Below are positions 15,655-39,791 of a stretch of 64,000 nt of DNA, piece by piece. Source of the stretch: Cudoniella acicularis (Eukaryota > Ascomycota > Leotiomycetes > Helotiales > Helotiaceae); the NCBI GenBank assembly GCA_013054445.1, contig JAAMPI010000034.1:1-64000 (forward strand), in the 5' to 3' direction. The stretch's first letter is position 1; every line of letters starts with the position of its first letter. Below the pieces are notes generated by a model that worked only from the letters and a program-made list of their open reading frames with translations, had not been told where the DNA came from and made no database searches. A program made the translations under genes and the position numbers.

Positions 15655-15780
15655 GGTCGCCAAGGCAAGGGTAGAAAGTGCAAGAAAGCTGGGTTTGGTG
15701 AAAGTTAGGGTTCGTGACCGCTAAACTGCAAGGCAAGGGTAGAAAAGTGCAAGAAAGCTGGGTTTGGTGAAAGTTACCGA
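15655..15780 (+). repeat. two copies of a dispersed short repeat (GCAAGAAAGCTGGGTTTGGT type)
   Basis: The phrase CAAGGGTAGAAA(A)GTGCAA, followed by GAAAGCTGGGTTTGGTGAAA and GTTA, occurs twice, about 65 bp apart. Near-identical copies stand alone at about 21505 and as a cluster of four at 37388-37590, all in the same orientation. It does not code for anything evident. Confidence 0.8.
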
Positions 15781-17264: not shown

Positions 17265-18214
17265 GATCGAATTGTGGGCGTTAGGTCTGAGCAGGTTATT
17301 CATTGTAACTATTTATGGATCATTGGTTCCTAGTTTAAGTCGTCGATAAATGGGATTTGTGTGAAGAGTGTCCACTTAAAGCCGCAATGAGGCAGGGTAG
17401 GATTATAGCTGAATGGCTGGGGCTGAATTATTTGTTCTGTCAACCAAGATGCCTTTCTCCAAGTGTTCTTTCTTGTGTCATATTTAATACTACTTCAATT
17501 TGACCTTGCCCTAAGCCCAATATTTATTTATCCTTACAATTGGAGACCCTAAGATATCCGAGGAGGGCGTTTGCATTTGATGTGCAGCATAAGCCTTCCA
17601 CTGCCGAGTCATTGGGCCCACGTCCCAATACTCAGCCTCACTTTTCAAATGAGAAATTTACCTTGCACAAGTTGCGACCCAGTTTGCCTGGCTTCCGGGC
17701 GACGGTGCCCAATATACAACTTCTTAACTCTGCAGTCTGATGTGTTGAATTTGCAGAACAGTCAAAATTCCAGTCACGCGACCCCACTATAACAATGAGC
17801 GCAATCCGCTGGGCCGAAAATTACCGTCTTCTTCCGTTGCCGACCTCAGCGTTGTCGCAAAATCAATTTCCATAGTACGACTACTATCATCACAAATAAC
17901 AGCATGTTGATCTGAGATAGCAATTACCACCTTCCTCGTCCTCTTACTATTCCTCAACATTGTCAAGGCACAACTATGGCTGAGGTTTGAATATCGGACT
18001 CTTGTCTGGAAAAAGCAGCTAACAAAACCAAGGGAGACAATGCGCTAAAGGGAATACCGGAGGATATTGACTTCTCCATCTTCCCCGCCTTGCCTTTCTC
18101 GAGAACTATTTCAGCGTCTGAAATCGAACATATTGCCATAACTTTGTCAGGAGAAGGGAACAAAAGCGTGGTCAAGCAAATGGTCAAGGACTACTCTTGT
18201 GTTGTTCTAGCGAA
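17265..18214. other. intergenic, nothing assigned
   Basis: Lies between the membrane-protein gene (+) and the 3' end of the paralogue gene at 18.2 kb (-), so it probably holds both terminators. Short frames occur (17540-17792 +, 17963-18187 -) without motif or splice structure. Confidence 0.4.
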
Positions 18215-19397
18215 TCACGAGGTCGAGATTATTGGGGGGAAGAATGTCAAGTTTGAAGCCGTGGCGTAGGAATCGGTGCGTCGTTTTGCCCTGAGGAGGG
18301 TCTTAAGCTTCAACGACATGACCCGGGAGAGTGGACAAAAGAACCATCCATCAGGCCCGGTGTCGCTAGTTGAAACTTTGATATTCAGAGCTTCTGTTAT
18401 TCCTGGGTGGTTTTCGGGGTCTGATTTGTATTTTTGCAGCTCCACTTTGAATAGTTGGCTGTCATGGAATCCATCGTAAAGAATTTTAGCCATCTGCACC
18501 CAAACCTCAAAATTATCCACAATTTCGATTGGAATTGAATTCCACACAAAATCTAACCAGTTTGATATTGTGGCTGGATATATTGTCAGAAAGGCATTAG
18601 CCTATCAAGAAGATGTTTGACATACCTTGTTTCTCGGAAGTCTCCTTTGCCTTTGAATTCGGATTATTGTGTAGCTTATGTCCCGCGAAACTTGGATTTT
18701 GCTTGCCTGGGTCCAGATTGCACGGTGTTGGGTTGTCCTCTGTTGATACGGTTCGTGGTGTCCGCTGATCTGATGCGTCTGGTTTGTATGGCCCCGAATC
18801 GTCCTCTTCTCTCATACTGCACGGCATTGACTGAATTGGTCCATTTGGATCGCACGGCGTTGGGTTGCCCTCTTTTGTTACGACGCCCAGCTTTGGTTGC
18901 TCTGCTGTGGGTTAGCCTTTATCCCTTCTCCAGTAACCTCAAGTTTCAATACCTTCATTTGCCACTACTTCACACGTAAGGGACGCATAAAACGCAGTGA
19001 ACGAAGGGCATGAGGCGTATCCGTCGTCTTTAGCCCATGTCTTGAGGTCTGCAGCCAAACTGTTGTCGCCGGTTTCGTCCAGCGTAAAACGACGCAAACG
19101 ATGCCAAAGACTCGCGTTAGGCATCAAACCCCTTGAGTTAATCTCCCGACAAATTCTGGGACTCACGCACAAGGCAAATGCGACTAGGAACAGTGGCGAT
19201 ATAGATAATGCTTGCTGGTAGATATTTTTTGCCCTATGCTCGTCGGTTGTAAATGTCGCGATATTAAAGGCAAGGTTAAGTCGAGGTCGAAGCCTTGCTG
19301 CTTCGTCCCGATTGATTGACTGATCAATATATAACATTCTTTGGGTGGACATGATCAAATTTTGCGTAACTGAAAATCTCCCGCGTTTGTGGGCCAT
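18215..19397 (-). CDS. member 1 of an unrecognised two-gene family
   Basis: Exons 19397-18953, 18904-18626 and 18552-18215 total 1062 nt and give 353 residues; all junctions are GT-AG and in phase. The N-terminal domain (about residues 20-145) matches the gene at 39.8 kb: NIYQQALSIS against NRIYNQALAIS, VAFALCVSPRIC against LAFATCVSPRAC, and LKTWAKDDGYAS against FKQWAKTDNYAS. The middle is low-complexity with duplicated NPTPC words (EGNPTPCDPNGP, EDNPTPCNLDPG), where the paralogue has a different repeat (MEGQRR). The C-terminal exon holds WNSIPIEIVDNFEVWVQMAK. No known family. The SANT-repeat gene (19.7-20.75 kb) lies just upstream on the same strand. Function unknown; the conserved Trp/Cys pattern suggests a folded domain under constraint. 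Confidence 0.65.
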
Positions 19398-19673
19398 TGT
19401 GGTGGTTTTTTAGTAGTTGCAAGGAGACACGACTGCTGTCTTTCTCAAAATAGGATGTTGTAATTGAGTCAGGTACAATACAATAAGACAGGCCGAGTCA
19501 ACTTGCAAAAACATTTACTCAGGGGAATTAGGGGTAGCGTAGGCCCCCCCAAATGCTCGGACCGCTGGCTGCGCCATGGCTAGACCTTTTGCAGTCTCAC
19601 AGGCTGCTTCTATCAAATGGGCCCACCCAGTTGAACAATCAGGTCTCCCAAATCAGATTGGAATACTTTTAAG

Positions 19674-20749
19674 TTATAATAAGAAAACTATAGCAATATT
19701 GGGATACGGGCATCTTGGAAAATGTCTAGCAGTCAAATGATGTCGTATCATCGAAGCACAAGTTGTATCCAGGGAATTTTCCTTGCTACCTGGCTCCCCA
19801 TCACTGCTTGACTCCCCACCACTGCTTGACTCCCCACCACTGCTTGACTCCCCATCACTAACTGGGTGTGCTCTGATGTTTGAATTAGGCACAGCGGTGT
19901 TGCATTTTCTTCACTCCTCCCCTTAAATCAATAACCCGTTAGCCAAATGCCGAGTAACGAATGAATTTGGGAATTCACTTACGTTCTGCATCGTTGGGCT
20001 GTTTTTCTTGTGGCCTTCGTCATAAACAGAGGTGTTAATTTCTTGTGTTTTTTGATTTGTGACCCCAGTGTTTGCTGATTTCCCTAATTTCCTTGGCCGC
20101 TGTTCAATTGCCCTGTTCGTGCGTGGCATTTTAGGGTGTTGCTTGTGGAATCCGTTCGCGATAATCCCAAGTTGGTTGGGACTTGTAGGTGTTTGTGTGT
20201 CAAGGCAAGACAAAGTGCTATTTTCTGGTCCTGTCCATGGTGTCCGAGCCTTGGATTTTTTGTGGAGTTTTTTAAGCTTGAGCTGTATCGAGGTTACCGA
20301 CCGATGATTCTTTCCCCAATATTGCCTATTGAGGGTTTCCGTGATAATAGCATCCCGTCCAGAAATGTGAGGTGTATTTTTGTCAAGGTCAAGGAGAAAT
20401 TTGGTCTCTTTTGATAACCAATCCTTGGAATTGGTATAGCCGTTATTCAGTTTATAAAGATGTTCTCGTTGATTTCACCGAGCGGTACGCCTTCTTCCAA
20501 TAATTCTTGTTGATGTATTTCGTGATAGCAATCATCCGACCATGAGAGTTCAGGGGGAACTCTCTGGCGAGTTTGAGGAGCAAATCGTCTTCTTCTTGAT
20601 CCCAGTGGCATTGGGGTTTGGCGTGACGTTTCGTGGTAACAGTCATCCGATCAGGAGAGGATGGGGGTTTTTTTTTTGTCGAGTTCAAGGAGGAAATCGT
20701 CTTCTTCTGGCACCGAGTGGCGTTCGGTTTTTAGCTTAGGTCTTCCCAT
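19674..20749 (-). pseudogene. SANT/Myb-repeat gene, copy 1 (frameshifted)
   Basis: Read from ATG 20749 on the minus strand this locus codes for four successive SANT/Myb-like repeats: VPEEDDFLLELDKKK, WDQEEDDLLLKLAREFP, WLSKETKFLLDLDKNTP and WTGPENSTLSCLDTQTP. Each is followed by a G/NR..AIT helix and, in two, by YWKKAYRSVKS or YWGKNHRSVTS as the third helix. The frames join only if the T10 run at 20668-20677 is one base shorter, and a second shift (or a 56-nt intron) is needed at about 20465. A GTAAGT intron after MQN (about 19985) leads to an acidic tail of SSSGGE repeats and the end motif CASMIRHHLTARHFPRCPY. Known SANT/Myb domains bind DNA or histones. It may be a decayed gene, or partly intact if the homopolymer is an assembly error. 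Confidence 0.6.
19795..19866 (-). repeat. 18-bp minisatellite coding for SSSGGE/SSSDGE
   Basis: Four units of 18 bp (on the + strand CATCACTGCTTGACTCCC with small changes) in the C-terminal exon of SANT copy 1. They keep the frame and give Gly/Glu/Ser repeats. The matching place in copy 2 (about 33090-33150) has AGGTAGCGAT repeats instead. Confidence 0.7.
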
Positions 20750-21067
20750 GATTGAAGAAGAATTAACGTGGAACTATCGGTGCGGTTTTTAGGTGAGAGA
20801 AGAGAGGAGAGTCACTGCGTATTTTCTGGTTCAGCAAGCACTGCTTTCGTTTGAGCGCGGTGTGCTCGGCAAGGCGACGAGGGCAGCTGCAAGAACGGTT
20901 GGCGAGACGAGGGGTGTGGCTTGCAAAAGGAAGCACACTATACCTCCGCAAGAGTTTACGTGTGTTGACTTGGCGCTTGTAATAGCTTAATGACCGACAG
21001 CATTTAAGTCTCCTCATTGACAGAACTGACAACCCAGTACGCAAGAGGATATGGGACTCGGGTGCAC

Positions 21068-21200
21068 ATAACTCCTCCCTCATGCTCAGACTTGCATCTC
21101 GCAAGCTGCAAGATGAAAGAAAAGATCGAGGCAGACACCGCGCAGCTGGTAACACAGCATGTCTTTCTGCACGACAAGGGGGGCGGAAACCGACTATCAT
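21068..21200 (-). repeat. upstream block shared with 32.19 kb
   Basis: On the minus strand this reads CCCCTTGTCGTGCAGAAAGA, then CATGCTGTGTTACCAGCTGC, then GCCTCGATCTTTTCTTTC. Close counterparts lie on the plus strand from about 32193. In both places the block lies about 390-400 bp before the ATG of a SANT-repeat gene, so the promoters were duplicated together with the genes. Confidence 0.75.
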
Positions 21201-21469
21201 AATATTTGACGTGGCTGTGAGATGGTGAGGCTAAAAAATACGTTAATACTGTATAAATCACTTCAAATTTTGTGGGAAAAGATACTCAAATATACAAGAC
21301 AATTTTACCAAGTATATCATGTAGACTAACCTGGTCTCCGGCCCGCGACCGCAAACCCGGGAGCCCAGCCCTCCTCCACGCATGGCATCCACTAACTTGT
21401 GGCAGATTTGGAACGCCGATGCATACCGGCGACCCACGGTGAAGTGCAGGCGAGCAGGAGAGTTTTGTG

Positions 21470-21545
21470 GAGCTAAGCTGATGTAGGATGTTCTGCCGAG
21501 ATGCAAGAAAGTTGGGTTTGGTGAAAGTTAAGTTTGGTGACTGTG
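21470..21545 (+). repeat. dispersed repeat pair shared with 37.4-37.65 kb
   Basis: Contains AGCTAAGCTGATGTAGGATG and TTCTGCCG, immediately followed by a copy of the GCAAGAAAGTTGGGTTTGGT repeat. Both words recur at 37.38-37.65 kb in the same orientation but in the opposite order, as if copied with rearrangement. Confidence 0.75.
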
Positions 21546-22474
21546 CAGTTTCTAGCCATATACGGCCAAGGCGCCTTTCGTGGCGTCCTCTTGGTCAGGT
21601 GCGCACCGGGGCGCACCTAGTGCGCACAATTGAAACAGGGCCTGGCCTTCTGCATGACGTGGGGTGAAGTGCCACCAGATGAGCACAGCCTGTGCCTCCC
21701 GGGCTGTCTCCAGTATCCCCGACTTGGAGCTCACAAGGAGGTGAGAGTTAAAAGCCAGCGTTGGCCTTTAACTTTGGTGGCTGCTGCGAGGCGTAACGCA
21801 TGAGCAGGGGTTGGTTTGTCAACAGGCATTGTGGCGTAAACTCGAGCTTCACCACCTCCTGCTTGATTCACTCTTGGGCAATTCCGTTTTCCGGTGCATT
21901 GTGAATATTGGAGTTCCTTTTGTTGATAATTCTATGTGGGTCTTGGGAACCTTAGCCATTGAATCTAAGTCAGCGGACGGGATGTCCGCCGTAAGGAGGA
22001 TCTGGCGTTTGGCAGGATATCAGGATGGTAACAAGGACTTCTGTCTGCCTCCCGTCCCTGAGCTTGGACTTTAAAGCTCGACACTCAACATCGCCATTGA
22101 AATGAGAATGCACACAGAAACTTTCTGGCCTGTCGTATGAGCCAAGGCATGTTGTCCACTTTGTTGTCGTTAAAAAGGCGAAAACTAATTTCTGGCACAT
22201 GTAGTTCAAAACACTTGTCAATAACCTCAGGTCAACAAGCACAGGTCCGATGCTAGAACTACCCATGCAAAGATCCTAATATAAATGGTTTATCAGCTAA
22301 CGTCAGCCTTGCCCAGAAATCTTGCCAACGCTTCATCCTATACCCTTGCCATTGTCGATGCCTACTTAGCTGAAAAAAGGGTATTCGTTACCTTCCTTTC
22401 TATCGACTCAATACCAAAAGCACTTTTCGTGTTCAAGAATTATCGGCAATAATTACGACTTGATCGATTTTGCC
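21546..22474. other. no supported gene; promoter side of the Zn2Cys6 gene
   Basis: GC-rich start, then mixed sequence with frames of at most 98 codons (21811-22074 +, 21970-22266 -) that show no recognisable domain. The last 200 bases presumably include the promoter of the regulator at 22475. Confidence 0.4.
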
Positions 22475-23966
22475 ATGACGGCAGCACCCCCCATACGGAA
22501 CAAGACGATCACCAGCTCGAAGTCTAAATTCAAGACTCGTACAGGCATCAAGGTGATCAATGGCCCGAAGTCCAAGGTCAAAACCGGATGCCGTACTTGC
22601 AAGTCAGTATTTCAAATAATGCTAATTGAAAGACGATACACTAATAATCCAAAAGAATTAGACGTGTTAAATGTGACGAGGGCAAGCCATACTGTCTCAA
22701 ATGTACCTCAACAAGTCGTATATGCAATGGATACGGAGACCCACAGAAAAATAATACGAAGAGGGGAAAAGGCTCTCCGCTGCCAACCCCACCGCCAACT
22801 CGACTACCTCAACCAAATCACGACGGAAATACCGAAACATTCCCCGCGTCCGAAATCAACTTCCATCTCCAAACCAACTATCTGCCTCCAGTTTGCCTTG
22901 GATGTAACTTCGCAAACTGCCTATGCGGAAAACCTGGCCAACAACAGCAATACTCAGTACCTATTCAATTCGATCACCAGAGACATGTGTTCGCGAGAAA
23001 TTTGAGTCCTAGCGCGATATGCAGCTTTGGCTTGACACTCGACACCGACTCCTACAAGAGAGGCGAGTGTAAAAGGCAAGGCATACAAACATCTGCAGAC
23101 TCCCAAATGTTCTCCTATTTTCAGCAATATGTCATGCCTTTGCTATTTGGAGAAAATTCTCTTGGATGGTTTCATAATTATTGGCCTACTCATCCTCTTG
23201 CAATTCTGGTGTGTTTATTATTAGGAGCTGAACATAGGCTACAGAAAAACCCTAATGAACAGCGTTGGTTCTGGGTTGTTGGATCGTATTTTCGGAGGAT
23301 TATTTTCGGCCTATCTGAAATGGAGAGTTGTAGGACTGAAGGCTATGAGGACTGGCTTGTTGCGACAACGAGTCTGCTATGTCTTTTCCACCAGGTATAC
23401 TCTTTCCAAATACTAAAACGATGCTTACTGAGACGGAATAGCGAGATAGACAGCCCCTCTCGACACAGAACCCATATATAAAATATCTCATCCGGATATT
23501 AAACAGTAGGGTTGGTAACCCTAGCCAGCAGCACCTCATCACATCGAATCCCATAGATATATTTGGATTGTATGTCCTTATATCTTACCTCTCTTTGGTA
23601 TCACATTGGGAGATATCAGGTTTTGAATACAGGTTCAATACCCCTTTCAATACTGATCCCTTAGCTCCGATTGATCTCTGTTCGCCTTTGGGAAATTACA
23701 GAATTCCTATCGAGACAACACGTTTTATTTATCGATTCCTCATTGATGAGATCCGACTTTCTCCTGCTAGAGATTTTGTCTTCGATGTAGACATGATTAA
23801 TAGCTATGTCAATTCAGGATTTGATGTTTGCGGAAGCGTAAACAGTCAGCAATGGGAGATATTAATTGTTAGGTTGCTCAATATTCTCGAAGAGGACCTC
23901 CCGAAACAAAGACCTAAGGGAGACCCGACGCAGTATCTGGATTCTCGTTTCTGTCTACCGGCTTGA
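22475..23966 (+). CDS. Zn2Cys6 fungal-type transcription factor
   Basis: Exons 22475-22602, 22656-23394 and 23532-23966 total 1302 nt and give 433 residues. The first intron interrupts the zinc cluster; spliced with the AAAAG acceptor at 22655 it restores a perfect C-x2-C-x6-C-x6-C-x2-C-x6-C pattern at residues 39-66 (CRTCKIRRVKC, then CLKC, then C66), preceded by a basic arm. This domain binds DNA in the nucleus in known members. A Pro/Thr-rich linker follows, then a mostly helical region with WFHNYWPTHPLAILV and LVATTSLLCLFHQ, as in the middle region of this class. The acceptor of the second intron (about 137 bp) is the least certain point; it was chosen because it restores phase. Target genes are unknown; it stands next to orphan genes, not a pathway cluster. 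Confidence 0.8.
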
Positions 23967-24594
23967 CTAGGGGCACGTTCTCCGGGGCTTGGTCATGAGC
24001 AGTGGGCACAAGTGTGATGGGGGTGGGAGGAGGTATTGCCTAGACCTTGGTGTACTGACTTGGTGGATTTAGCAACTGTCTTCCAACTGAGTTCTTTGTA
24101 TTATGTCATAATCATTTACGGAAAGTGGGTTGACTATATATTCATCTGCTGTCAATATCATATCATATTGTTCCTCAGATACTATATTATATTCGTGTCA
24201 CCAAAAACGTGCAATCCAGCGGACACTACCGCAGAGATATTCCATCTGTGTATAATCGCACATTCTCGCTTTAGGGTATGACAACTTTAGAGACTTGGTC
24301 AAAGAGAAGTGATGATTCAATTCCATCACATCTCATCCCATTGCCCCCCACTCGAGTCTCTGTACGCCAATAACGGCTCGTACCTGGTGGAAGTCCAAGG
24401 ACTCAAGATGACCTGGCCGGGCTGAACCCCTGCAGCCTTTTTCCGTCTAGCGCCCGTGTGCCCAATCGCAGCTTTGATCTCACCATGAACATGCACAGTA
24501 TCTATCTAGCATAATCTTCTACCAACATTCGTCCACGCAAGTGTCCACAACACCACCGCTTCGCTTTTCAACCCAAAACATTTTATCCCAAAAA
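23967..24594. other. intergenic
   Basis: Contains the 3' side of the Zn2Cys6 gene and the promoter side of the gene at 24595. Short frames only; no motif seen. Confidence 0.4.
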
Positions 24595-25782
24595 ATGGGA
24601 TCTCTCTTAAAGTAAGTCTTTACCTACTACCTCTTCGTGGTGTTGCCTAACAAATTGTTGAGATTTAGTGTTGAGATACACTCTGAAATCTTCTCCTTTT
24701 TAGGAGGGGAGGATCTTGAAGCCATGCAACTCACTTGCCATTATTTCGACTACCTGGGTCCACCAATCTCTATTCGCGTACATGCCGTCAACTTAGACAG
24801 CTTCAACCGGATGGAGTTGATCTCCAAGGCTCCTCTACTAGCCAACCGTGTCCTGTCGATTTCTTATTCTGGATGTCGAGCACAATCTCAACAGTGCACT
24901 TGGATAGATGGGAGAGATGACGACCTGCTGCCATCTGCGACTTGGACAACTTTCCGCGACTCAATGCCAAAGTTCAGACGTCTTCAGGAATTCGGAATAA
25001 AGATGCGAGACTCTGATGAGGATTGGTGTACGTGTGGATTTCAGGAAGATATTTTAATCTTACAAGACATCTTGTTGAAAAATAAGCCTCGCCTTAAGAT
25101 TTTCAGTCTCACGCCTCCCTACTGGGCATCGCTGTCACCGCCAATATCGTGGCTCCCTCTGTTCTCCTCCCTACATCATTTGACTTTCACGTGGCCTATT
25201 AGGCTAGAAGATAAGCAGGGACTGCAGGAGCTTCTCAAATATCCTCAAAGCATCAAACTTCTCTGTCCCAAGGTTTCGTCACAAGGTCGATCTATTGGTG
25301 GTCGTAATTTGGATTTAATTACCCAAGAGACGTTGCCCCGCCTCAGGAGACTAAGCATTCTTGGACCTGCGCGTTCATCTGAACAGGCGCTACGACACTT
25401 CTTTCGAGAACACCCGAAGCTTGAATTCTTTTTGTTAGCAGGGCTAAACGAAAAGGATTGGGGGTTTCTGCCAAAAGTCTGGCACTTTGGTGATTTTTTC
25501 CCGCAGCCGGAAGCCAAGATAACGACCATATCTCACGATTCAAAGATAACAATTTCGCCCAATGCCTTTTTGAGAAGATTTATCTTTGGAACGTATACGC
25601 CTCTTGATTCTTCCTATCCGTGCATTGCGGCAGGTGTCTTACGCCTGTTACCAGGTGCTCATTATTATTCAGAGTTAGGAAAGCGGGTCGATCCTGACGA
25701 CGAGGTATTCTGGGCGTCGATGATGCCTAAGAGCCTTCGTATCATCAACAAAGCGGAATATTCCTATACCATTATATCATAG
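24595..25782 (+). CDS. F-box-like protein, paralogue A
   Basis: Exons 24595-24611 (17 nt) and 24663-25782 give 378 residues. The N-terminus FSVEIHSEIFSFLGGEDLEA, then MQLTCHYF, resembles an F-box (a first helix with a Leu/Ile-x-x-Ile-Phe pattern). The body has a conserved skeleton shared with the gene at 26.1-27.5 kb: DSFNRM / RSFQKM, YSGCRAQSQ / YRGCRKPATQ, ISWLPLFSSL / LSWRPLFSSL, and a final VFWASMM / VFWSTVR. The middle may hold degenerate leucine-rich repeats (IKLLCPKVSS, LRRLSILG). Known F-box proteins of this size recruit substrates for ubiquitination. It lies tail to tail with its paralogue, 350 bp apart, so the pair came from an inverted duplication. Confidence 0.7.
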
Positions 25783-26131
25783 CCAATTGATCGTCTTCCC
25801 AGCCCTCTATCAATCCATCTCATCCCCAGAATTTGTGTTCCATTCAGTTCCTGTAAGCCACGACTCCTGAGAAGACTTCAGGATCGACGAGTTATGATTC
25901 GCTGCTCGATTACACATTTGTTACTGGAATAGGAAGGGGATTTGTACCCAGAAATCCGCGGAAAAGAGGTGGACATGGCAGGAAAGATAGGGGTCAGGGC
26001 AATGGGATGAGGGCGAGGCTACAGGAGAGGAGAATAGCGATGAAAAGTGCGAGGAAGAGTGTTAAAATGATATCATATTCATGAAGGGGCCGATAGTCAC
26101 AATTTCATTCTCTCTTATTGCTTGATACTTG

Positions 26132-27524
26132 CTACTGAGACTCATTATCAGGTGCAAACCTTGGCCCGAGGCGGATCATCCTCACAGTTGACCAGAATAC
26201 TTGGTTATTAAGCTCAAGTTTTTCATGGTCTTCGTTAGGGATATCCGAAACAGACCAACTGAATGTTTTAATAGTAGGCAGAGGTTTCCATTCGATCCCC
26301 CAAACATACTTTCCAAAGCGACTCCGTCGCTCAAAAGTAACTACTGATCCTGGTTTCAAATTCTTGAACTCGGCTCCAGCAAAAACAGTATACACCCCAC
26401 GCAGAGTCAGATGGTTCCAACTTGCCGGCAAAAAATTCAGCCACCTCAAATAAATAATACCTGGATTTCTGCTAAAGAAATTTTGTACTAATTGTACGGA
26501 TGAATCCACGTTTCCGGTAATTGTAAGTGTCTTCAGGTTCGGAAAAGTGCCAGTAGTAAAATGGTCGAAATTTGAAAGAAGGCCGGGAATAAGTCCCCGG
26601 ATTTCAATGTTTTGGAGACGTTGGAAAAGCTCCTGCAATATTGGACCGTCTGCTGGCTCAAAATCATCCCTCCAGGGAATATCTAAAGATCGTAGGGATG
26701 AAAATAATGGACGCCATGATAACGGGAGCTCTAGCCATTCAGCAGTGAACGGGAATCTTAATTTTTTAAGACAAGGCAATTGATCCAAGTTTTCTAGCAA
26801 GATGTCTCGTATAGTTAAGAGATCATCTTCGAAGATGCATTCACAGAGTTCATATCTTTTGTTGTGTGATCTCCCTTCGAATACGAATTCTTGAAGAGCC
26901 GTGAAATGTGTAATCGAGCTGCTGAGGAGTTCCCAAATGGTCGGGTCGATCGGCAAGGGGTCTGGAATATTAGAGTTGCATCCTTGGGTCGCTGGCTTTC
27001 TACAACCACGATAGCGTATCTTTTGGACGCGTTCCGGTAGTCGAGGCAGTTCAGCCGCAGCCTTCATCTTTTGAAAGGATCGTGGATCGATGGCTTGTAA
27101 CTCGAGTGTAATCGGTGGGTCTGGTATCATGAAGCGGAGGGCTTGGCAAGTGTATTGTAATTTCAACTGATCCGGCTCTTCTGTACTCCGTAAAACTCTT
27201 AATTGCAACTCAGGAGGCAATCTAGTTTATTTGTTAGATAATAGAACACGAAGAATTAAGTAAACTTTACCTTAGTAGAGGAAATCGTCCTCCTTTCTCC
27301 AAACCCGTTTCGTTTCTGCTAGACGAGGACACAAGTTCTGATACTGTACCTAATTCTTTCTCCGTTACTGTCCCTGATACCGTTCCCGATGCTGTCGGAA
27401 CATTCATTTTGTGATCTGCAAGCTCTTTATCGTCGATAAATTCAGCGTTGTGGTAACCATCGTCGGTGCGCCAGGTGAGTTGTGTTCTACTACTCTCGCC
27501 GTGTGAGGATTGGTAAGGAGGCAT
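26132..27524 (-). CDS. F-box-like protein, paralogue B
   Basis: Exons 27524-27271 and 27221-26132 total 1344 nt and give 447 residues. It has an 80-residue hydrophilic N-terminal extension with a TVSGTVTEKELGTVSEL repeat-like stretch that its neighbour lacks. The intron sits just before LPPELQLRVL, the F-box-like first helix, in the same relative place and phase as the intron of paralogue A. LRR-like pieces follow (LKKLRFPF, LRSLDIPW, LKTLTITG). The C-terminus matches paralogue A as described there. A role as substrate receptor of an SCF ubiquitin ligase is inferred from the family plan alone. Confidence 0.7.
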
Positions 27525-29939
27525 AGTAAAAGAGAACTAGTCTAGCGGAGACTGTAGTAAAGTATACTCGAAAGTCGTATGCGGTCAAATCCTTCGTCGG
27601 ATGATGAAAGATTTGGGAGGAGGATGAAGGACAGAAAGCGTTATCACCTGTGGGGAGCAAGAAAAGCAGCGGTCAACAGACTGTAGCGAACCTGTTTTTA
27701 CGGCAGGCTTTCAAAGCCACGTTCTAAGACATGGATACAAACGCTCTAAATACAAAATACTCTGCCTAGGAAGAGATCACTGCTTTAGTTGATTAAATAA
27801 TAAATATAGAGTATATTAAAGTTCAACTTAACTACTATAAATCGATAATTCGAACTTATTATTCTATTGCATCCCTATTAAGAATAGTGAAGTTGTCGGA
27901 GGCCGCTGCTATACAGACACTCCGCCGTATAAATTAAGCACAAAATTTTATTAATATATAACTGAAAACATAACGAATATTTTCTTGCCTAGGGGGAAAA
28001 AAAAAAAGATTCTGTTTCTTTCTTTTATTTAAATTCTCCCCCTGCGGCAGCCTCTCAGGGGAACCTATATTCTCTGCCCCCTTTTCCTCGCTTAGCGCAC
28101 AACACCGCAATTGTACCAACCACGACAATTTATTTTTAAAGAATATTGCGAAGAAAGACCTTCAGGGAAATATGCTTATAATTTGCGCAGTTGTCTCAAG
28201 TATATAGCGGTGTAATAGTGGATGGATTTATTGGAGCGAAGACCAGAGCGTCACCCTGAACTTGCAGAAATCTACAGGCTTTTAAGTACTAACTACAGCG
28301 CATTTCTCACTAAAATACAGCGGGGACTCGCTGTAAGTTGCATGCTGCATTTCACGCACCAACGCGCAACAGGCTCTCCTTTTCTATAGATAGCTTACGC
28401 CTCGAATTCATGCACGCCAACGCCGCACCCAACTGTGAGTGAGCTCCCGTCTCCGGGGCAGTTCAGGAAATACTGCGACTTCTTGCGGCAAATTTAACCA
28501 TCTGCCAACACCATCCCCATATCTTTCTTTGGTAAATCTCGCTCATTCGCCAGGAAATTTGTCGACAACGCGAATTTTAAGATGGTCAGCATCGGGGAGC
28601 ATGCTTCAATCACGGATGCAGCGAAGGGCCGGGTACGATCTCGTGTCTTCCCCATGAACTAGCTCCGCCAGCACTCCTGGGGGCCTTGTGAGTCAAGAAC
28701 TCCACCATACACTTCCAAGTAACCTGATGGGGTGTTGTAATTGAGGAATGGCTGGGCAATGTCGATAGATTTTCCGATGGCTTCTTCTCCCCTTTTGGGA
28801 ACTTCCGGGTGAGATAGCACAGAACTGAAGAATATTCGGTAGATGCTTTGGAGAGGAGAGGAATTGACCAAAAAAGATCGACTGGATCGCGTTCTTTTTG
28901 TCAAAGACAGTCGTGGACATATTTCTCAACGTTGCTGCCCAAAGGATCCATACAGGTACAGCGGTTGCATTTGCTGACGGATCGGATACTCTAAGCGATA
29001 CAAGGTGAGGTGCCTTGGGCAGTCCTGTTTCTCGTCATTGTGATAGGAGCATCTGGATCGATCGGAGAAGATCATGGGAAAGCAAAAAGAAAAAAAAGAT
29101 AGACAAGCAATCTTACACAGTTCCAAGGTGACTGGTTAACTAATCTCACCCAGGCCTCCCTCTATTCCTGCCCCCCTGAGATGGCTTAAGCCTGGTCAAG
29201 CCGTAGATGCGTCAATGGTCTGTGGCAGCAGGGCTGCAGGGGCTGGGTGTGTTGTAAAACCAGGGGCTGCAGGAAAATAGATCACAGCCGAAAGTAGGTT
29301 GAATTCATTTTTATTTCCAACTGGAAATTAAGTTTATTGGCTGCTCGGTCAAAGGTGTCACTTCCCGTGTCCATGTCTCTCGGGTTCAGCTTCCGTTGTT
29401 GAGCTCGAGATGAATAAGAGGTCTTCCACCGGTGTGGTAAACTACGCTGCACATACACGTTTGTGATTTCTGTATTCGGCATAATGAACTCTTTAATAAT
29501 ATAACCCAAATAATGTCTCTTTAGAGTGAATGAATCCAATTCAGAGAGGGATTTCAATTTATCAGCTAAGCGGAAGCTTGTGGCTACACTCCAGAATATT
29601 GCACCCCTTGACGTGAAGGGAAAATAGGCCCAGTCTTCTGCAATTTCCAGGATAACCTGGAGAATATAAGTCGAGTGGCATGCATGAGAGTGGCTTTAGC
29701 TGGCTTGGGTCAGGCTTCCCGGAGGTAGTCCCGCTCAACAGTCTGCAGCTCTGAGCCCTGTAGCTTTAACGCCCTTGGCTACACGATCCCCGAATCGCGA
29801 TCTATGTGGCTTTAAGCTATTTTGCTCTTTTAATGTATTTTTCTCCCTACTTCTTCCATAATTTTCTCTTTTTAACAATTCCTGGGTTTCACTCTCCACT
29901 TCACTTAACAAATTCGAACCTGCCGGTAATACAAATGAG
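27525..29939. other. long gap with AT-rich part and broken frames
   Basis: Bases 27730-27960 are AT-rich and resemble RIP-damaged repeat. On the minus strand, 28440-28930 holds two overlapping frames; one reads HPEVPKRGEEAIGKS and then YNTPSGYLEVYGGVL, which looks protein-like and may be a decayed gene, family unknown. A 91-codon frame at 29282-29557 (-) has no support. Nothing else is seen. Confidence 0.4.
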
Positions 29940-30343
29940 ATGGACATGGAATGTAGAGAACCAGAAGAGGGACTATTTTACCTTAAAATGGCTACTTGTA
30001 AGTTAAAATTCAAATTTCTAAAGCACGTTTTCACTGACACCTTGAAGCAAATGCTAAAGTCTTGTTTGGCTCCAATGCCAAAGTTGCGATCGGCTTCGAC
30101 AAAGGGGAGTTTGTCGCATGGGTCTCCTTAAACGGCGAAGTCAAAGCCAAAGCCAAATGCAAAGGCCGTAGCAAACAGCTTTACTGGTGCCTGAAATCGC
30201 TGTTGCGAATCCTGATTCAGGGGGTGGAAAAGACATACGGGAAGGCTCTCGCTGAGGTGGGGGATGAATATGTATCGTCAGCTTCGTCATCAGATTTGAT
30301 GGGTTTGGATTTTTCAAAGATGGCGACTTTGAAAGGAGAATAG
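29940..30343 (+). CDS. small two-exon orphan protein
   Basis: Exons 29940-29997 and 30048-30343, separated by a 50-bp intron with GTAAG donor, CTGAC branch-like site and AAG acceptor, give 117 residues. The splice joins two frames that are not otherwise continuous and produces a short internal duplication (SNAKVLFG / SNAKVAIG). The middle is basic (EVKAKAKCKGRSKQ), followed by a helix-like LLRILIQGVEKTYGKAL. No signal peptide and no known domain. Confidence 0.5.
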
Positions 30344-31689
30344 AGAGCGACGAAAGGAGATCACAAGGTTCTGGTGTGTCTGAGAAAGGAACCGGCCAGC
30401 TTCAATTGAGTTTAAAGCCACGATCTGAAACGTTTTGTCCTTATTGATCGTGATTCATCCCCTCAAATATCCCATACAAGTAATGGTGTCTCCACCGACC
30501 CCTCATGGCCCTCATCATGCCCAAAAGTAGTTCTCGTTTCCGATATGTGGAGTTCCTACAGTAAGAATGCCGCTGATCAGCAATGAATCAAAGCTGAATA
30601 TCAGGGAGACTGACGAGTTTGAACTGAACAATGCACAGCGCGATGGCAAAGTTGGCGGTTGAAGAACAAATTTCTGCCGAGGCCAATGGCGATAAAGTGT
30701 CAAGGTTTGGGTGCCAGAGTTGAAGCTCCGTTCCACTCTGCGCACCTGCCTGACGATGGAAAGATCGAGAGAATGTATTATCGGCATTACAGCTGACAGC
30801 GAGCCACATAATACAAAATTGGAGAGCGGGGTGTAGTGTATATAATTCTCGGGAGATACTGAATCGAGACAGTATATCAGTCACATCTGAATCACGACCA
30901 TCTGCCTGACAAAATGGTCAGTATTGCTCAAATAGGACTAGAAGTCGCATACGAGACAATGAGCGCATGGAGCATTATGAACCCAGACCCAATGTGGGCA
31001 GTTATGCGTGAAGAAGTACTTGCACCTGTACTTGTAGTATCCTCCAGATCCCGACATTGTTGATGATTCAAGTCAAATGGTTTAAGGTGAGTTCGAGATT
31101 TCCTGAGATCTACCGGTTCAAAAAAGAGAATCGGGGAAGCAACCCCCCTAATTATAATGCATAACAGAGATCAAGGGAAAAACACCATTATTCACTGTCA
31201 CAGAACTTCTGCCGCTGAAGCCGTGGAGGATTTCTTGGCATTGTCCTGTAAGAATTCGCGTAAACTCTGGAATTTGTTGCACATCGCTCTAATTCTGTTT
31301 CAATCCCCGAGCACACTGGTTAATCCGGACTTTGTGGTGCCTTCACTGGCCCAGGGCGCTTCTGGGTGGCGGGGGACCTGTTAACGCCTGGCGTAAAGTA
31401 TCGATGCCAGCTTCCTGCCAAAGCGGAATGTATCCACTTACGGTTAGTAGTCTTTTTCCAGGTGCGGTGACATCAAATTCGTTTGGTACGTGCATCCATG
31501 TTTGTGTTGTGTTACCATGCGGACAGGGGCAGGGACAGGGTTCTTGGGAACGGCGGCTCCACAGCCGAGTTCAATCCAACGTCTGCTGCGGGCAACAAAC
31601 CTTCTGCGAACAGAATCACACCCGGGCCATGCCGCCTCCAGCCTCTGTCCAGATAAGGACTTCGATGCTTACGGTGCAGAAATGCATGA
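30344..31689. other. intergenic, nothing assigned
   Basis: Minus-strand frames of 90-98 codons (30515-30884) and plus-strand frames at 31157-31730 overlap each other and lack any motif or splice support. A GGGGCAGGGACAGGGTTC stretch near 31525 is simple-sequence-like. Confidence 0.4.
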
Positions 31690-32147
31690 ATGAGGCCTTG
31701 GGGGAAAAAAAATTGGAATGGAAAAGATAACCGATGGAGAAATCTTTTGGTACGCTTTTAGCATGTAAAGTTTTTATTTATCTGACTCAAATTTAGGCTG
31801 CGCGAAAGGGATTCGTCAAAGAGGAATTGCAGCGACAAGGCCTATCCCCAAAGCAGTTCAAGGAATCGGATGTGATCCAAAAGCGTTACCATATCGCCCA
31901 AATTGAGCGCGCTTTTGCTGCCCAATTTTTCCAGTATACTCGGGATAATTCTTGGATGCAAGACGCTGTCGGCCCCGATAGTAGTTGGATATATATCCAC
32001 GGAATGAGTGTTTGGCATGTGAGGTTTGCACTTCAATCAATCGAAAGCGATGTCAGGGACGACGCGCTGATCGAACCTACCGGATCAACTTCCTCGTCCC
32101 TGCCCGCTGATCCCATCTCAAAGTCGGCCACGAACGCCAGTGGATAA
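31690..32147 (+). CDS. small two-exon orphan protein
   Basis: Exons 31690-31749 and 31797-32147 give 136 residues; the 47-bp intron has GTACGC and TTTAG ends and the phase fits. The product is hydrophilic and helical (FVKEELQRQGLSPKQFKE, then YHIAQIERAFAAQFFQY), followed by a Trp-rich piece (DSSWIYIHGMSVWHVRF) and a Ser/Pro tail. No family recognised. It stands just upstream of the duplicated block at 32.19 kb and the SANT copy 2 on the same strand. Confidence 0.5.
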
Positions 32148-32189
32148 GTGAGGCACTTTGCGTGGCAAAGCCTCATTATCCCACAGTTA

Positions 32190-32285
32190 GTCTGTTCTCA
32201 GCCCCTCTGTCGTACAGAAGGACACGCTGTGTTACCGGCTGTGCAGTATGTGCCTCGACCTTTTCTTCCGGGTTTGAGCATGAGC
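32190..32285 (+). repeat. upstream block shared with 21.1-21.2 kb
   Basis: Plus-strand partner of the block at 21068-21200 (-); reads CCCCTCTGTCGTACAGAAGG, then ACACGCTGTGTTACCGGCTG, with about five in six bases identical over the compared stretch. It lies about 400 bp before the ATG of SANT copy 2. Confidence 0.75.
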
Positions 32286-32592
32286 GAGCGGTCTGCCTTC
32301 AACTGCCGTTTTAGCTACTTTCCGGATACGTGTATCACGGATGTGACGTTAGCTGAATTTTCTTACATGACTGCACTTCGCGTACTTTGTTGATGGTGTG
32401 TCATTCTGGTAGAATATGGGATTTGAAGCCTCATAGAGATCTACACAAGTCAAGGGACTGTCACTCGTACTTGTGTTAGTTTCTCTTGCTTAAACCCACA
32501 TTGCTGAACGTCACGACTCGAAGCCTTGCTCTTGCTGTGAACTACCTGCGTACAACATTCTACATTTTCAGTTCCGCACTACCCTCCACCAC

Positions 32593-33310
32593 ATGGCTCC
32601 TTCATGGATGCGGTCAGAAGATGATTTTCTCTCGAAGCTTAACTTAGAACAACCTACGGGCGAACGGATAAATTCTTTCACAAAAAAGCTTAACAAGAAG
32701 TTTGGGACCAGTCGCACACCGCACTCAGTCAAAGTGAGGCTCGCGAAGGTGAGGGGGGGGTGTGACAAGACGGAACAAAGTCTGGACAGAAGAAGAAGAT
32801 GATGCTTTACGCCGCCTTGCCAAAGTTACAAAATTTTGCGACGCGGTTGCAAAGTTCCAGAAGGGGCACCCCTCTCGCACGAAAGAAGCAGTTAAATCTC
32901 GTCTCCGACGGATAAAATCGGGTTCACAATAGACACCACCACAAAATAGCATCGAAGTCCTTGAAATGCAAAACGTAAGTGGATTGTTAAGTGCATTTAG
33001 TATTTGACTAATAGGGCGTTAGTCTAGGGGTAATGAAGAAAGTACAGCACTATTGTGTCCAATTCAAGCATCGAAGCACATTCATGTAGCGATTGAAGAT
33101 CAGGTAGCGATGAAGAGTCAACTTGCGGTGCGGAGTCAGGTAGCGATAGATACCGATGGACAGTCTGATAGGAAAGATTTGTGTTGAATGATGACGAGGA
33201 GATTGAGATGTAGAGACTTGGGAGTTAAATGTGCTTCAATGATAGGACATCGTTTGACTATCAGACGGTTCCCAAGATGCACGTATCCTAATATTACTCT
33301 AGTTCTTGCT
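32593..33310 (+). pseudogene. SANT/Myb-repeat gene, copy 2 (one-base frameshift)
   Basis: ATG 32593 opens a first SANT-like repeat (WMRSEDDFLSKLNLEQP, ending RTPHSVKVRLAKV) and, after the G8 run at 32753-32760, a second one in another frame (VWTEEEDDALRRLAKV, ending SRTKEAVKSRLRRIK) up to TAG 32930-32932. With one G fewer the two join into an intact 112-residue two-repeat protein. Beyond the stop, the DNA still matches copy 1: the GTAAGTG donor after an AATGCAAAAC word at about 32970, the AATAG acceptor, the GAAGCACA word, and at 33215-33300 the end motif CASMIGHRLTIRRFPRCTY. So the ancestral gene was longer. A DNA-binding role is inferred from the repeats; it is either a young pseudogene or a sequencing artefact in the G run. 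Confidence 0.6.
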
Positions 33311-33599
33311 GTGATTCCAAGAAAAGTGTTCCGGGAGAACAGATTGTTCGATCGGGTTGTCTCATTTGATGGTTTGATGGCAGCAGCCGGTAAGACTAGC
33401 CAGCCACAGGCCATAAACCCTCGACCGCAGCGCAGCCAGCTGTTTTGACTTTTAGGGACGATACTTTGCTTCTCCTGATCACACCCCGACCTCACCAGTG
33501 ACCCGATGTGTCAGAGGATCCGCAGTGTCCATCTTCCCTCTTCTCTCTTCTCACCCATGCACATTACATCGCAATTATATTAACCTTTCTCTAATAATA

Positions 33600-34050
33600 T
33601 GAGGAAGTACACCTCATCTCAAAGTGAATTGGACAGAAGAAAACACTTTGTTCCTTGCCCTTGACAAAAAAAACACGACCTCACTGCCCTGGACGAATAG
33701 CTATTGACCCAACCAGCAATTTTGGAAGAAGCCGCACCGCTCCGTGTGCTCAACGAAGCAACGACTCAAGAAACTAAAAAAAAGGCCACAAAACCTCTGA
33801 GTGCAAGTCTTGGAAACTTTGGACTGTCGAAGAAAGGTTACTCTTACTCCCCTTGCTCAGGAAATACCCAAAGGCAAAAACCAGATTCGCAAAATCGTGT
33901 GTATTGTGTTAAGATCTTCGGGCTGCCATCTTCCGCTGCTTTTGCTGCAACCTCTCGGGCAGCAAGCTCGACGCAAACGATGCATCAAGCTCGCATCAGG
34001 CTCTGCAGTAGATTAGTACGGAGTTGGGATAGCTGGGAGGGAACTTAACG
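33600..34050 (+). pseudogene. SANT/Myb-repeat gene, copy 3 (degraded)
   Basis: Pieces of the same repeat family occur in more than one frame: NWTEENTLFLALDKK at about 33618, then PGRIAI in another frame, then NQQFWKKPHRSVCSTKQ (close to NRQYWGKNHRSVTSIQ of copy 1) at about 33710, and SWKLWTVEERLLLLPLLRKY at about 33810. The frame changes lie near an A8 run and near 33715, and a TGA follows. At least two frameshifts separate the repeats, so this copy is broken whatever the assembly quality. It lies 300 bp after the end of copy 2 in the same orientation, as a tandem. Confidence 0.55.
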
Positions 34051-35289: not shown

Positions 35290-35604
35290 ATGGCAGAGAC
35301 GACGGAGGTGGGGAATAAAGCTCTAGTGGGAGAGGAGGAATCTATCGAGATGAATCAATCCCCTCCAGAGGTGGGGGATAAAGCTCTAGCGGGAGAGGAG
35401 GAATTTATCGAGATGAATCTATTTCCCGCAGAGGGGTACGATAGAAAAATGATATTCACGGGCTATTGGATCACAATTTATCACAAGACAACAATGGAGC
35501 CAATTGTTAGCCAACATAATACAACCCAAGGCAAGGAGTTTGACATCCCGAAGGATTATATTTGCGAAGTTACAAAGGGAACAGTAAAGTTTATCAAAAT
35601 GTAA
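35290..35604 (+). CDS. small orphan protein with N-terminal tandem duplication
   Basis: Single exon, 104 residues. Residues 5-46 are two copies of a 21-residue acidic unit (EVGNKALVGEEESIEMNQSPP, EVGDKALAGEEEFIEMN) that differ mainly in conservative places, from a 63-bp tandem duplication. The second half (FTGYWITIYHKTTMEPI and onwards) is beta-like. The 3' end overlaps the convergent gene at 35594 by 11 bp. No family recognised. Confidence 0.45.
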   Translation: MAETTEVGNKALVGEEESIEMNQSPPEVGDKALAGEEEFIEMNLFPAEGYDRKMIFTGYWITIYHKTTMEPIVSQHNTTQGKEFDIPKDYICEVTKGTVKFIKM

Positions 35605-36423: not shown

Positions 36424-37381
36424 TCCTTGAACGCGGATGAACGTGAAGGGGCAGAGGCAAATCGAGGGGGGGCGATGCTTTGTGGTATCGTGGCTTTAAT
36501 GGGACATTGACTTTGTTCGTGTAGGTGCGCTCCTTCAGTCAGTGCTCCACCTTGTGCTCCCCATCCCACTTCGATACCTTGGAGTCTTTCATCTCTCTTG
36601 GGTTTTTTGTGCGCACTCGTTTGTTGGTTACCAGCTGGAGGTTCTCTGCGTTTAAGACTCAGCGATAATGTGCTTTCCGGCAGTGAAGAGTCGTAGCATT
36701 CTAAGGTCGCGGTGCGATCGAGCTGGTGAGGGGCTGATGGTGAAGAGTCGTGGCATTCTAAGATCGCGGTCTGATCGATCTGGTGAGGACCTGACGGTTC
36801 ATCTATTAATGTCAACTATAAACTCTGCGTTGTGCCTTGGGATTCATACCAAACTGCAATGGTCTTATTAGCCTAGGGGGCTTCAGAGCGGCGTCGGCTT
36901 TGAGCTTCTCCTCTATATTCTTGCGAGCCTTGCGACGGAGATTTCGATCGGTTTTTAAATTGTTGAACGCCGACTGGCATGCATCGCCAAATTTTTCAAG
37001 ATCCGAACCGAAGGCATCGAGCTCCTCTTTGTTTATGTATGAGATAACTCTCACAAAAGGGCCAAATGTAAGCGAACGTAGAAAAGTTCCAAGAAACTGA
37101 TCCTCGGGCGTCACGTAACTCGAGAGAAGCTTGTCGGCCTCGTGCTCTTTCGTGCGTTTATTTCTAGGTGCGCTTGAAAATATATTAAGAAGTTTGTAAA
37201 AATAGTTGATGTCTTCCTTGTGAAAAGCCTGAGAGAAATTTGAGAGGTGGTATTTTACGCCTTGTATTTCAAACCTTTTCAGGTCTTTAGTTTGAATAGA
37301 CCCGTTTTCATCGACGGTGGTAAGCTGGTATGGAGGGGACCCCACGTCACGAACAAAATAAAGTCCAGGTGCGTATGACAT
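36420..37381 (-). CDS. two-exon orphan protein with repeat linker
   Basis: Exons 37381-36850 and 36802-36420 total 915 nt, 304 residues; the 47-bp intron has GTATGA and AATAG ends. The N-terminal about 175 residues look folded (LYFVRDVGSPPYQLTTVDEN at the start, later FLRSLTFGPFVRVISYINK) and end in a basic helix (NLRRKARKNIEEKLKAD). After the splice come two copies of a 19-residue unit (PHQIDQTAILECHDSSPSA, PHQLDRTATLECYDSSLPE), then a basic stretch HKKPKRDERL and a Gly/Pro/Ser-rich end. No family recognised. A splice from about 36508 to 36428 would remove the stop and fuse it to the next gene in frame; that donor is weak. Confidence 0.55.
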
Positions 37382-37655
37382 CCCGTCGCAAGGGTAGAAA
37401 GTTGGGTTTGGCGAAAGTTAGGTGACTGCAAACTGCAAGAAAGTTGGGTTTGGTGAAGGTTGGAATTAAGTGGCTGTAAAACCGCAAGGCACGGGTAGAA
37501 AGTGCAAGAAAGTTGGGTTTGGTGAAAGTCGGGTTTTGATGACGGCTAACTACAGAAGTGCAAGAAAGTTGGGTTTGGTGAAAGTTAAGCTTGGTGACTA
37601 GCAGGGGTCCTTATGGAGCTAAGCTGATGTAGGATGTTCTGCCGGGCTACGAGGG
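37382..37655 (+). repeat. cluster of the dispersed GCAAGAAAGTTGGGTTTGGT repeat
   Basis: Four copies of GAAAGTTGGGTTTGGTGAAA or close variants lie at about 37400, 37430, 37508 and 37565, separated by 30-80 bp of related words (GCAAGGGTAGAAAGT, GTTAGGTGACTGCAAACTG). The cluster is followed by GAGCTAAGCTGATGTAGGAT and GTTCTGCCG, as at 21.47 kb. It sits right at the 5' end of the membrane-protein gene and just upstream (5') of the minus-strand gene at 37381. Confidence 0.85.
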
Positions 37656-39288: not shown

Positions 39289-39791
39289 CTCAATTTTTAT
39301 AAGACACAGTACGATTTATTAATTCTTTGGAGGATAAAATTGGCCGGCTGGAATCGGCAATGGCGACTCGCGATTATTAGGAAATATTCGAGGCCATCAG
39401 AAACATTTCACTTGGTGTCATTCTCTGGAGGGGTCATTTTGACGGCAGACTTAATGGAGTTAGGCACCAAAGCCATGTATATATCATGTAGCATCAAGCA
39501 AATCATTTTGTGAATGAATTCCCAATTCAGAGCCTAAATTAATTTGCATGGCTGTATTAACAGAAGGATACAGTCTGGCCTAAAGCTGCTAAAATAAAAT
39601 AAAAATATTGTCGCAGATAATAGGGTCACGTCGGAAAATGAACAACACAAGTCCCGAAGAAAACCCGAGCCAAGCACCTCCCGAGCTTGGGTAAGGATAA
39701 CTGCACACAATGTGACATACCATGTGCACTCCCAACTCGTCCATCCATCATAACATACCACAACCGCACCTCACCTTCCAAAGAACCAGTC

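What the first reader, a model, noticed from the sequence alone, without database searches (positions are those of the whole stretch)
19674..34050. Unrecognised SANT/Myb-repeat gene family, three copies in 14 kb
Three loci (19.67-20.75 kb -, 32.59-33.31 kb +, 33.60-34.05 kb +) code for arrays of SANT-like repeats of the form W-x2-E-[ED]-D-x-L-L-x-L, then a [FY]-W-x-K-x-x-RSV or RT-x-x-SV helix. Copy 1 has four repeats, copy 2 two, copy 3 at least two. Copies 1 and 2 also share an intron after the repeats and a C-terminal CASMI-x-H-x-LT-x-R-x-FPRC-x-YPNI motif. Tandem SANT repeats plus this fixed end motif do not match a family I can name; all copies carry frame problems, so it may be a family caught while decaying.
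Basis: partly seen in the sequence, partly recalled or inferred. Interest (0 to 1): 0.75.

Follow-up and report, generated by a model that had tools for sequence, protein, structure and literature searches.

The report
Decayed Myb-type gene copies, inverted duplication
Three broken copies of what looks like a fungal gene for a string of Myb/SANT-type (DNA-binding-like) units sit in what looks like an old mirror-image duplication; this is mostly an ordinary case of a fast-changing gene family falling apart.

Summary
The three loci are real. A profile built only from copy 1 picks out copy 3 (E 5e-9) and copy 2 (E 3e-6) among 1,666 six-frame fragments; the best control hit has E 0.47. The repeats are Myb/SANT-like: 10 of 15 PDB matches of their profile are Myb, CDC5 or CEF1 (best E 0.015), and repeat 3 is predicted as a three-helix bundle resembling Myb/SANT and homeodomain folds. 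No window repeat reaches a Pfam cut-off. All copies have frame breaks; some lie in homopolymer runs, others do not. Codon signature is weak beside that of duplicated neighbours. The 'FPRCxYPNI' end motif is conserved DNA, but neither codon pattern nor normal splicing supports it as protein. Copies 1 and 2 fit an old inverted duplication of four nested gene pairs. Searches of the 53-Mb genome found further copies only in this window, at limited sensitivity, and a more distant array on contig C548 with open relatives elsewhere. Verdict: relics of a lineage-restricted Myb/SANT-like array gene. Odd: two non-coding-looking blocks stay about 83% identical.

The parts
20672..20749 (-). Copy 1: ATG and first half of repeat 1 (truncated unit); reading frame broken at a 10-base homopolymer run, 20668-20677
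   Evidence: six-frame translation and coordinates; repeat 1 vs 2 DNA 74% over 103 nt
20461..20610 (-). Copy 1: repeat 2
   Evidence: Pfam Myb_DNA-binding below cut-off
20079..20423 (-). Copy 1: repeats 3 (20256-20423) and 4 (20079-20243), in another frame than repeat 2; the switch near 20461-20465 is not in a homopolymer run
   Evidence: three-helix model for repeat 3
19922..19982 (-). Copy 1: likely intron after the repeats (GTAAGT ... CTAAC ... TTTAAG, 61 nt)
   Evidence: inferred
19695..19859 (-). Copy 1: 18-nt repeats and the conserved end block with the CASMI...FPRCPYPNI reading
   Evidence: protein reading not supported
21117..21196 (-). Copy 1: conserved upstream block, about 370 nt before the ATG
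   Evidence: 83% to 32188-32267; a 33-base core at only these two places in 53 Mb with up to 3 mismatches
32593..32760 (+). Copy 2: ATG and repeat 1; frame broken at a G8 run, 32753-32760
32777..32929 (+). Copy 2: repeat 2, followed at once by a TAG stop
   Evidence: Pfam Myb_DNA-binding E 4e-4 to 7e-4, below cut-off
32975..33027 (+). Copy 2: likely intron (GTAAGT ... GACTAAT ... TCTAG, 53 nt)
   Evidence: inferred
33230..33295 (+). Copy 2: conserved end block with the CASMI...FPRCTYPNI reading
32188..32267 (+). Copy 2: conserved upstream block, about 330 nt before the ATG
33599..33897 (+). Copy 3: start, repeat 1 (33624-33704 and 33711-33794, stop in between) and start of repeat 2 (33805-33897, other frame); no aligned block beyond 33897 up to 34300
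18033..18254 (+). Duplicated neighbour A (partner 41009-41221 -)
   Evidence: tblastn E 1e-15; third-position excess
18942..19409 (-). Duplicated neighbour B, open frame (partner 39642-40751 +, open, 370 codons)
   Evidence: tblastn E 1.5e-11; relatives on C1089 and C992; third-position excess
24616..27226 (.). Pair of F-box-like genes in opposite orientation (24616-25779 + and 26135-27226 -), innermost pair of the inverted arrangement
   Evidence: blastp E 3e-25, 28% identity; F-box matches E 0.04-0.05, below cut-off

Best explanation
The three loci are pseudogene relics of one lineage-restricted gene that coded for a protein built of tandem Myb/SANT-like three-helix repeats. Copies 1 and 2 most likely arose with their neighbours in an old inverted segmental duplication (order A+ B- SANT- Fbox+ | Fbox- SANT+ B+ A-, with several kb added later between SANT copy 2/3 and B' on the right arm); copy 3 is a truncated extra copy beside copy 2, closest in sequence to copy 1. 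The intact ancestor most likely worked as a DNA-binding (or chromatin-binding) protein whose repeated helix 3, rich in K and R, contacts DNA; this step is inferred from the fold. The array loses, gains and frameshifts units readily. Shown: homology of the copies, Myb/SANT-like profile matches and predicted fold of one repeat, frame breaks, mirrored pairs, weak codon signature. Inferred: DNA binding, loss of function, a single duplication event, time order.
Against: Each window repeat is below Pfam cut-offs. 5 of 15 PDB profile matches are unrelated, the second best among them. The whole model has mean pLDDT 63 and repeat 4 is not folded confidently. Foldseek gave no match at E <= 0.001 and VIA Z stays under 8, a level the tool itself calls common for helical bundles; homeodomain, TEAD and other rows are mixed in. 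Two or three frame breaks sit in or near homopolymer runs and could be sequence errors. Window-repeat alignments are short (7-55 codons), not independent and low in power; 1 of 15 pairs does show third-position excess (p 0.008), and a weak excess remains overall. Two short blocks are better conserved than free decay predicts. Some window repeats are in direct, not mirrored, order (15.66/37.4 kb, 21.5/37.6 kb, 24.4/29.8 kb). DNA binding was not tested.
Confidence: 0.72

Rival explanations
1. At least copy 1 is a working gene: the apparent breaks are assembly errors in homopolymer runs plus unrecognised introns, and the protein has four Myb/SANT-like repeats and a C-terminal tail.
For: Breaks at T10 (20668-20677), G8 (32753-32760) and near A8 (33776-33783) coincide with runs; 183 codons of copy 1 (19926-20474) are open; donor GTAAGT kept in both copies.
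Against: Breaks outside runs in every copy; weak third-position excess, while neighbours A and B and the C548 repeats have it; other long frames of the window, e.g. 910 codons at 52378-55110, are open, so the assembly is not generally broken.
Confidence: 0.13
2. The copies are remnants of a mobile element whose ends are the two conserved blocks (upstream and end block).
For: Both blocks flank the copies and are the best conserved parts, 51 of 60 and 49 of 60 ungapped identities.
Against: Upstream block at only two places in 53 Mb; neighbours A, B and F-box are paired too, in mirror order, so the unit looks larger than the SANT gene. Terminal inverted repeats and target-site duplications were not examined specifically; the repeat scan of 17-36 kb (25 nt or more, seed 11) listed three inverted pairs, none of them a pair of ends of one copy, and cannot see shorter ones.
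Confidence: 0.05
3. The repeats are a chance reading of AG-rich DNA, not a protein family.
For: Single matches are weak; runs of A and G; little codon-position bias.
Against: Held-out profile test and controls; predicted three-helix fold of repeat 3; profile match with the C548 array.
Confidence: 0.04

Closest known systems
Myb/SANT-like domains (Pfam PF00249, PF13921, PF13873)
   Same: Repeat length about 50-60 residues, W ... E-x-D ... L-x2-L, three predicted helices, K/R-rich third helix; 10 of 15 PDB profile matches are Myb, CDC5 or CEF1.
   Different: Each window repeat is below the curated cut-offs; only the first tryptophan is invariant in the five aligned repeats. No open array was found in the window.
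C548 tandem array of the same genome and its relatives P0001-P0004
   Same: Tandem Myb/SANT-like repeats (about six units in C548, read by eye), also with frame breaks; profile-profile probability 85, E 5.9e-6 with the window repeats.
   Different: Repeat signature is ...GL-x2-[RQ]T-x2-[AS]V...; single repeats of the two groups share little sequence, and the relationship may be just 'both Myb/SANT'. P0002 (386 aa, on a 2.7-kb contig) is open over about five units and passes PF13873 and PF13921; P0001 passes PF13873 narrowly.
Fungal MYB transcription factors, e.g. the ten of Magnaporthe oryzae (PMC8660761; start of abstract in a listing, and found passages)
   Same: Weakly conserved Myb repeats, low conservation of the tryptophans.
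   Different: Those have one or two repeats with long disordered regions; the same paper gives up to four repeats for MYB proteins in general. Here four (copy 1) and about six (C548) in a row.
GT-1 trihelix, Zeste and fission yeast Sap1 DNA-binding domains
   Same: Among the best structural neighbours of repeat 3.

Membership tests
Myb/SANT-like fold | three-helix bundle | tested here: met
Pfam Myb families PF00249, PF13921, PF13873 | sequence match above the curated cut-off | tested here: not met
   best 20.2 bits vs cut-off 24.4; 2 of 5 repeats match PF00249 at all. I therefore say Myb/SANT-like and do not file the repeats under these Pfam families.
Myb-type repeat proteins | tandem repeats with regularly spaced tryptophans | tested here: inconclusive
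   tandem repeats present; only the first tryptophan is invariant in the 5 aligned repeats.
Myb/SANT proteins | DNA or histone-tail binding | not testable with these tools
   none
C548-type tandem array | GL-x2-[RQ]T-x2-[AS]V helix-3 signature | tested here: not met
   alignments A1 and A4; a profile of nine C548-family repeats finds in the window only copy 2 repeat 2, E 0.01, controls 2.8 and 0.56.
Pseudogene | disabling breaks in the reading frame | tested here: met
   stops and frame switches in all three copies, some outside homopolymer runs
Pseudogene | loss of codon-level constraint and of expression | tested here: inconclusive
   weak third-position excess beside neighbours, short alignments; expression not testable

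The most novel reading that the evidence does not exclude
The SANT reading frame is dead, but the locus is still used as DNA or RNA: the upstream block and the end block of copies 1 and 2 are kept in cis (for example as promoter and 3' end of a regulatory transcript made from the inverted pair, which could form double-stranded RNA against remaining array genes). That would be a Myb/SANT-array gene turned into a regulatory inverted repeat.
Probability: 0.06. Interest if true: 0.6.

Novelty: new member of a known kind. Interest (0 to 1): 0.3.

Why it matters
It points to fungal genes with Myb/SANT-like arrays longer than the one or two repeats described for M. oryzae, one of them caught in decay beside duplicated genes that still show codon-level constraint. 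The C548 array and its relatives P0001 and P0002 give a better starting point for asking what such arrays bind. Practical use is modest: annotation of lineage-specific genes and a test case for gene loss and gene conversion in inverted duplications. 'Known kind' here means lineage-specific Myb/SANT-like repeat genes and their pseudogenes.

Tried and rejected
RIP as cause of decay: TpA/ApT 0.65-0.89 and (CpA+TpG)/(ApC+GpT) 1.07-1.29 in the copies, within the range of the window's 4-kb bins (0.63-0.93 and 1.03-1.40); 71 of 107 differences are transitions, with no CpA preference. Relatives of the window copies: 882 candidates, none at E <= 1, and 1,156, none at E <= 10. Hit C1324 of the C548 array search (E 0.2): by eye part of an AAA-ATPase-like gene, dropped as chance. 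Of contigs C992 and C1089, which hold relatives of neighbour B, I fetched 20.0 of 48.9 kb and 15.2 of 43.2 kb; best SANT-profile hits there E 0.61 (window profile) and 0.031 (C548 profile, 30 residues), not taken as repeats. Link of the end motif with the finger-like stretch downstream of the C548 array: 18.9 bits in a two-sequence comparison, too weak to use. A DEDDh-exonuclease-like motif seen by eye near L017:2868 (motif recalled) was not supported by Pfam or the PDB. DNA searches of the own genome with 1.1-1.2 kb of copies 1 and 2 found only the query itself, i.e. are blind to the other copy. Protein searches are limited too: repeats 1-2 of copy 1 found only copy 1, repeats 3-4 found copy 3 and C548 but not copy 2, the end stretch found copy 2; further diverged copies elsewhere are not excluded. 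Foldseek found no match at E <= 0.001. Rfam: 0 matches at gathering scores; ARAGORN (bacterial settings): 0 tRNA genes. Seven paper searches ran: I saw listings (one search had none), and of PMC8660761 also found passages; by titles and abstract starts no listed paper was about a fungal array of this type.
Full report
What is there. The window lies on contig C1105 of an unnamed 53.2-Mb genome in 1,836 contigs; a Zn2Cys6 match above Pfam's cut-off and weak F-box matches suggest a filamentous ascomycete (inference). Copy 1 has a truncated repeat 1 and repeats 2-4; copy 2 has two repeats; copy 3 has one repeat interrupted by a stop, and the beginning of a second.

Are the repeats more than chance? 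I built a profile from copy-1 repeats 2-4 only and searched 1,666 six-frame fragments of the window. Directly under the three training repeats came copy 3 (E 5e-9), copy 2 repeat 1 (3e-6), copy 1 repeat 1 (0.03), copy 2 repeat 2 (0.27) and copy 3 repeat 2 (0.34); the best hit was 0.47 in the reversed window and 1.2 in shuffled fragments. So the first two are strong, the third suggestive, and the last two at background level on their own. The reverse test with the two copy-2 repeats is weaker: copy 1 repeat 2 at 0.0038, copy 3 at 1.0, controls 0.35 and 1.3. At DNA level copy 3 aligns with copy 1 (33538-33897, three overlapping or adjoining blocks of 59-72%); against copy 2 only the 21 nt shared by the two compared stretches were listed.

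Breaks. Frame changes coincide with homopolymer runs at 20668-20677 and 32753-32760 and lie near 33776-33783, and there sequence error is possible. Others do not: the switch at 20461-20465, the TAG after copy 2 repeat 2, the stops and switch between the serine-rich stretch and end block of copy 2, and the stop inside copy 3 repeat 1.

Selection. In protein-guided codon alignments the duplicated neighbours show a clear third-position excess (B' vs its C1089 relative 52/45/94; B' vs B 41/32/54; A vs A' 29/22/49; 0 of 5,000 permutations each), as do 5 of 6 pairs of C548 repeats at p < 0.05. Of 15 pairs of window repeats 1 does (copy 1 R3 vs copy 3, p 0.008); the sum is 222/185/246, a 1.2-fold excess against 1.4 (C548) and 1.8 (neighbours). 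An earlier test on chosen conserved segments gave 173 of 521 differences at third positions, p 0.53. The pairs are not independent and many are short, so this fits loss of constraint but does not prove it.

End motif and intron. The motif reading CASMI-x-H-x-LT ... FPRC-x-YPN is in both copies, but its 13 base differences fall 5/3/5 on codon positions and 9 are transitions. With the shared GTAAGT donor, 0 of 27 AG acceptors in copy 2 and 5 of 21 in copy 1 reach it without a stop; the acceptors that match between the copies (61 and 53 nt, after CTAAC/CTAAT) do not. I therefore treat it as conserved DNA. In the upstream block 12 differences in 63 bases fall 3/3/6 in the frame tried and 10 are transitions.

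Inverted arrangement. Self-comparison shows four nested pairs, each in opposite orientation: A 18033-18254 + / 41009-41221 - (E 1e-15), B 18975-19223 - / 40008-40238 + (E 1.5e-11), SANT copy 1 with its upstream block / copy 2 with its block, and the F-box-like genes 24616-25779 + / 26135-27226 - (E 3e-25). From these coordinates the pair midpoints are near 29.6 kb for A and B and 25.9-26.7 kb for the SANT and F-box pairs, so a single event needs several kb gained on the right arm (or lost on the left); separate events are possible. Other repeats in the window are in direct order (15.66/37.4, 21.5/37.6, 24.4/29.8 kb) and the Zn2Cys6 gene at 22.6-23.5 kb has no listed partner. B has further relatives on C1089 and C992; in the parts of these contigs that I fetched no clear SANT repeat was found.

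Copy number and relatives. Protein searches of the own genome with repeats 1-2, repeats 3-4, the end stretch and the upstream block found window loci and one weak hit, C548 (E 1.04). No single search found all three copies, so diverged copies elsewhere are not excluded. C548 turned out to hold a second tandem array of about six units, itself with stops and frame switches. Its 285-codon part has four relatives in the protein database (E 5e-116 to 2e-35); P0002 (386 aa) is open over about five units and passes PF13873 and PF13921, P0001 (411 aa) passes PF13873 narrowly. The profiles of window and C548 repeats match each other (hhalign probability 85, E 5.9e-6), and the window profile ranks three C548 stretches first (E 1e-5, 0.013, 0.015) among 1,387 fragments of six other loci (C548 had been chosen by such a match, so this is not independent). 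In the other direction a profile of nine C548-family repeats finds in the window only copy 2 repeat 2 (E 0.01). Whether this is close kinship or simply the common Myb/SANT kind cannot be told. The window copies themselves had no relative in the database.

What remains odd. The upstream block (51 of 60 identities ungapped) and the end block (49 of 60) are far better kept than anything in the A/B segment (best 39 of 60) or in ten shuffled controls (31-34 of 60), while fourfold sites of A/A' and B/B' differ at 8 of 14 and 8 of 12. Patchy gene conversion between the inverted copies, a later duplication of the SANT unit, or constraint in cis could explain it; nothing here decides.

Verdict. Relics of a lineage-restricted Myb/SANT-like array gene in what looks like an old inverted duplication: real, modestly interesting, a new member of a known kind.

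Noticed in passing
L017:165-1654 (contig C548): Second tandem Myb/SANT-like array of about six units with signature GL-x2-[RQ]T-x2-[AS]V, broken here, but with relatives P0001 and P0002 open over five or six units in the protein database.
   Followed up: partly
L017:1914-3275: Downstream of the C548 array, same strand: a C-x2-C ... H-x3-H finger-like stretch (Pfam zinc-finger matches below cut-off) and a long frame of unknown kind.
   Followed up: partly
window 15661-15776, 21465-21542, 37396-37644: Short repeats (pieces 75-100% identical) found by DNA search of the whole genome only at these places of the window.
   Followed up: partly
window 39642-40751: Open 370-codon gene B' with no Pfam match and an M-E-G-Q-R-R type internal repeat; relatives on C1089 (52%) and, with stops, twice on C992 in opposite orientations.
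   Followed up: partly
window 21117-21196 / 32188-32267 and 19695-19760 / 33230-33295: Two blocks about 83% identical between copies although the repeats between them have diverged; unexplained.
   Followed up: partly
window 35305-35430 and 36683-36798: Head-to-tail duplications of 63 nt and 57 nt within open frames.
   Followed up: no
window 42908-43666: Frame with C2H2-like fingers and a match to the DNA polymerase alpha zinc finger just under Pfam's cut-off (25.3 vs 25.7 bits).
   Followed up: no
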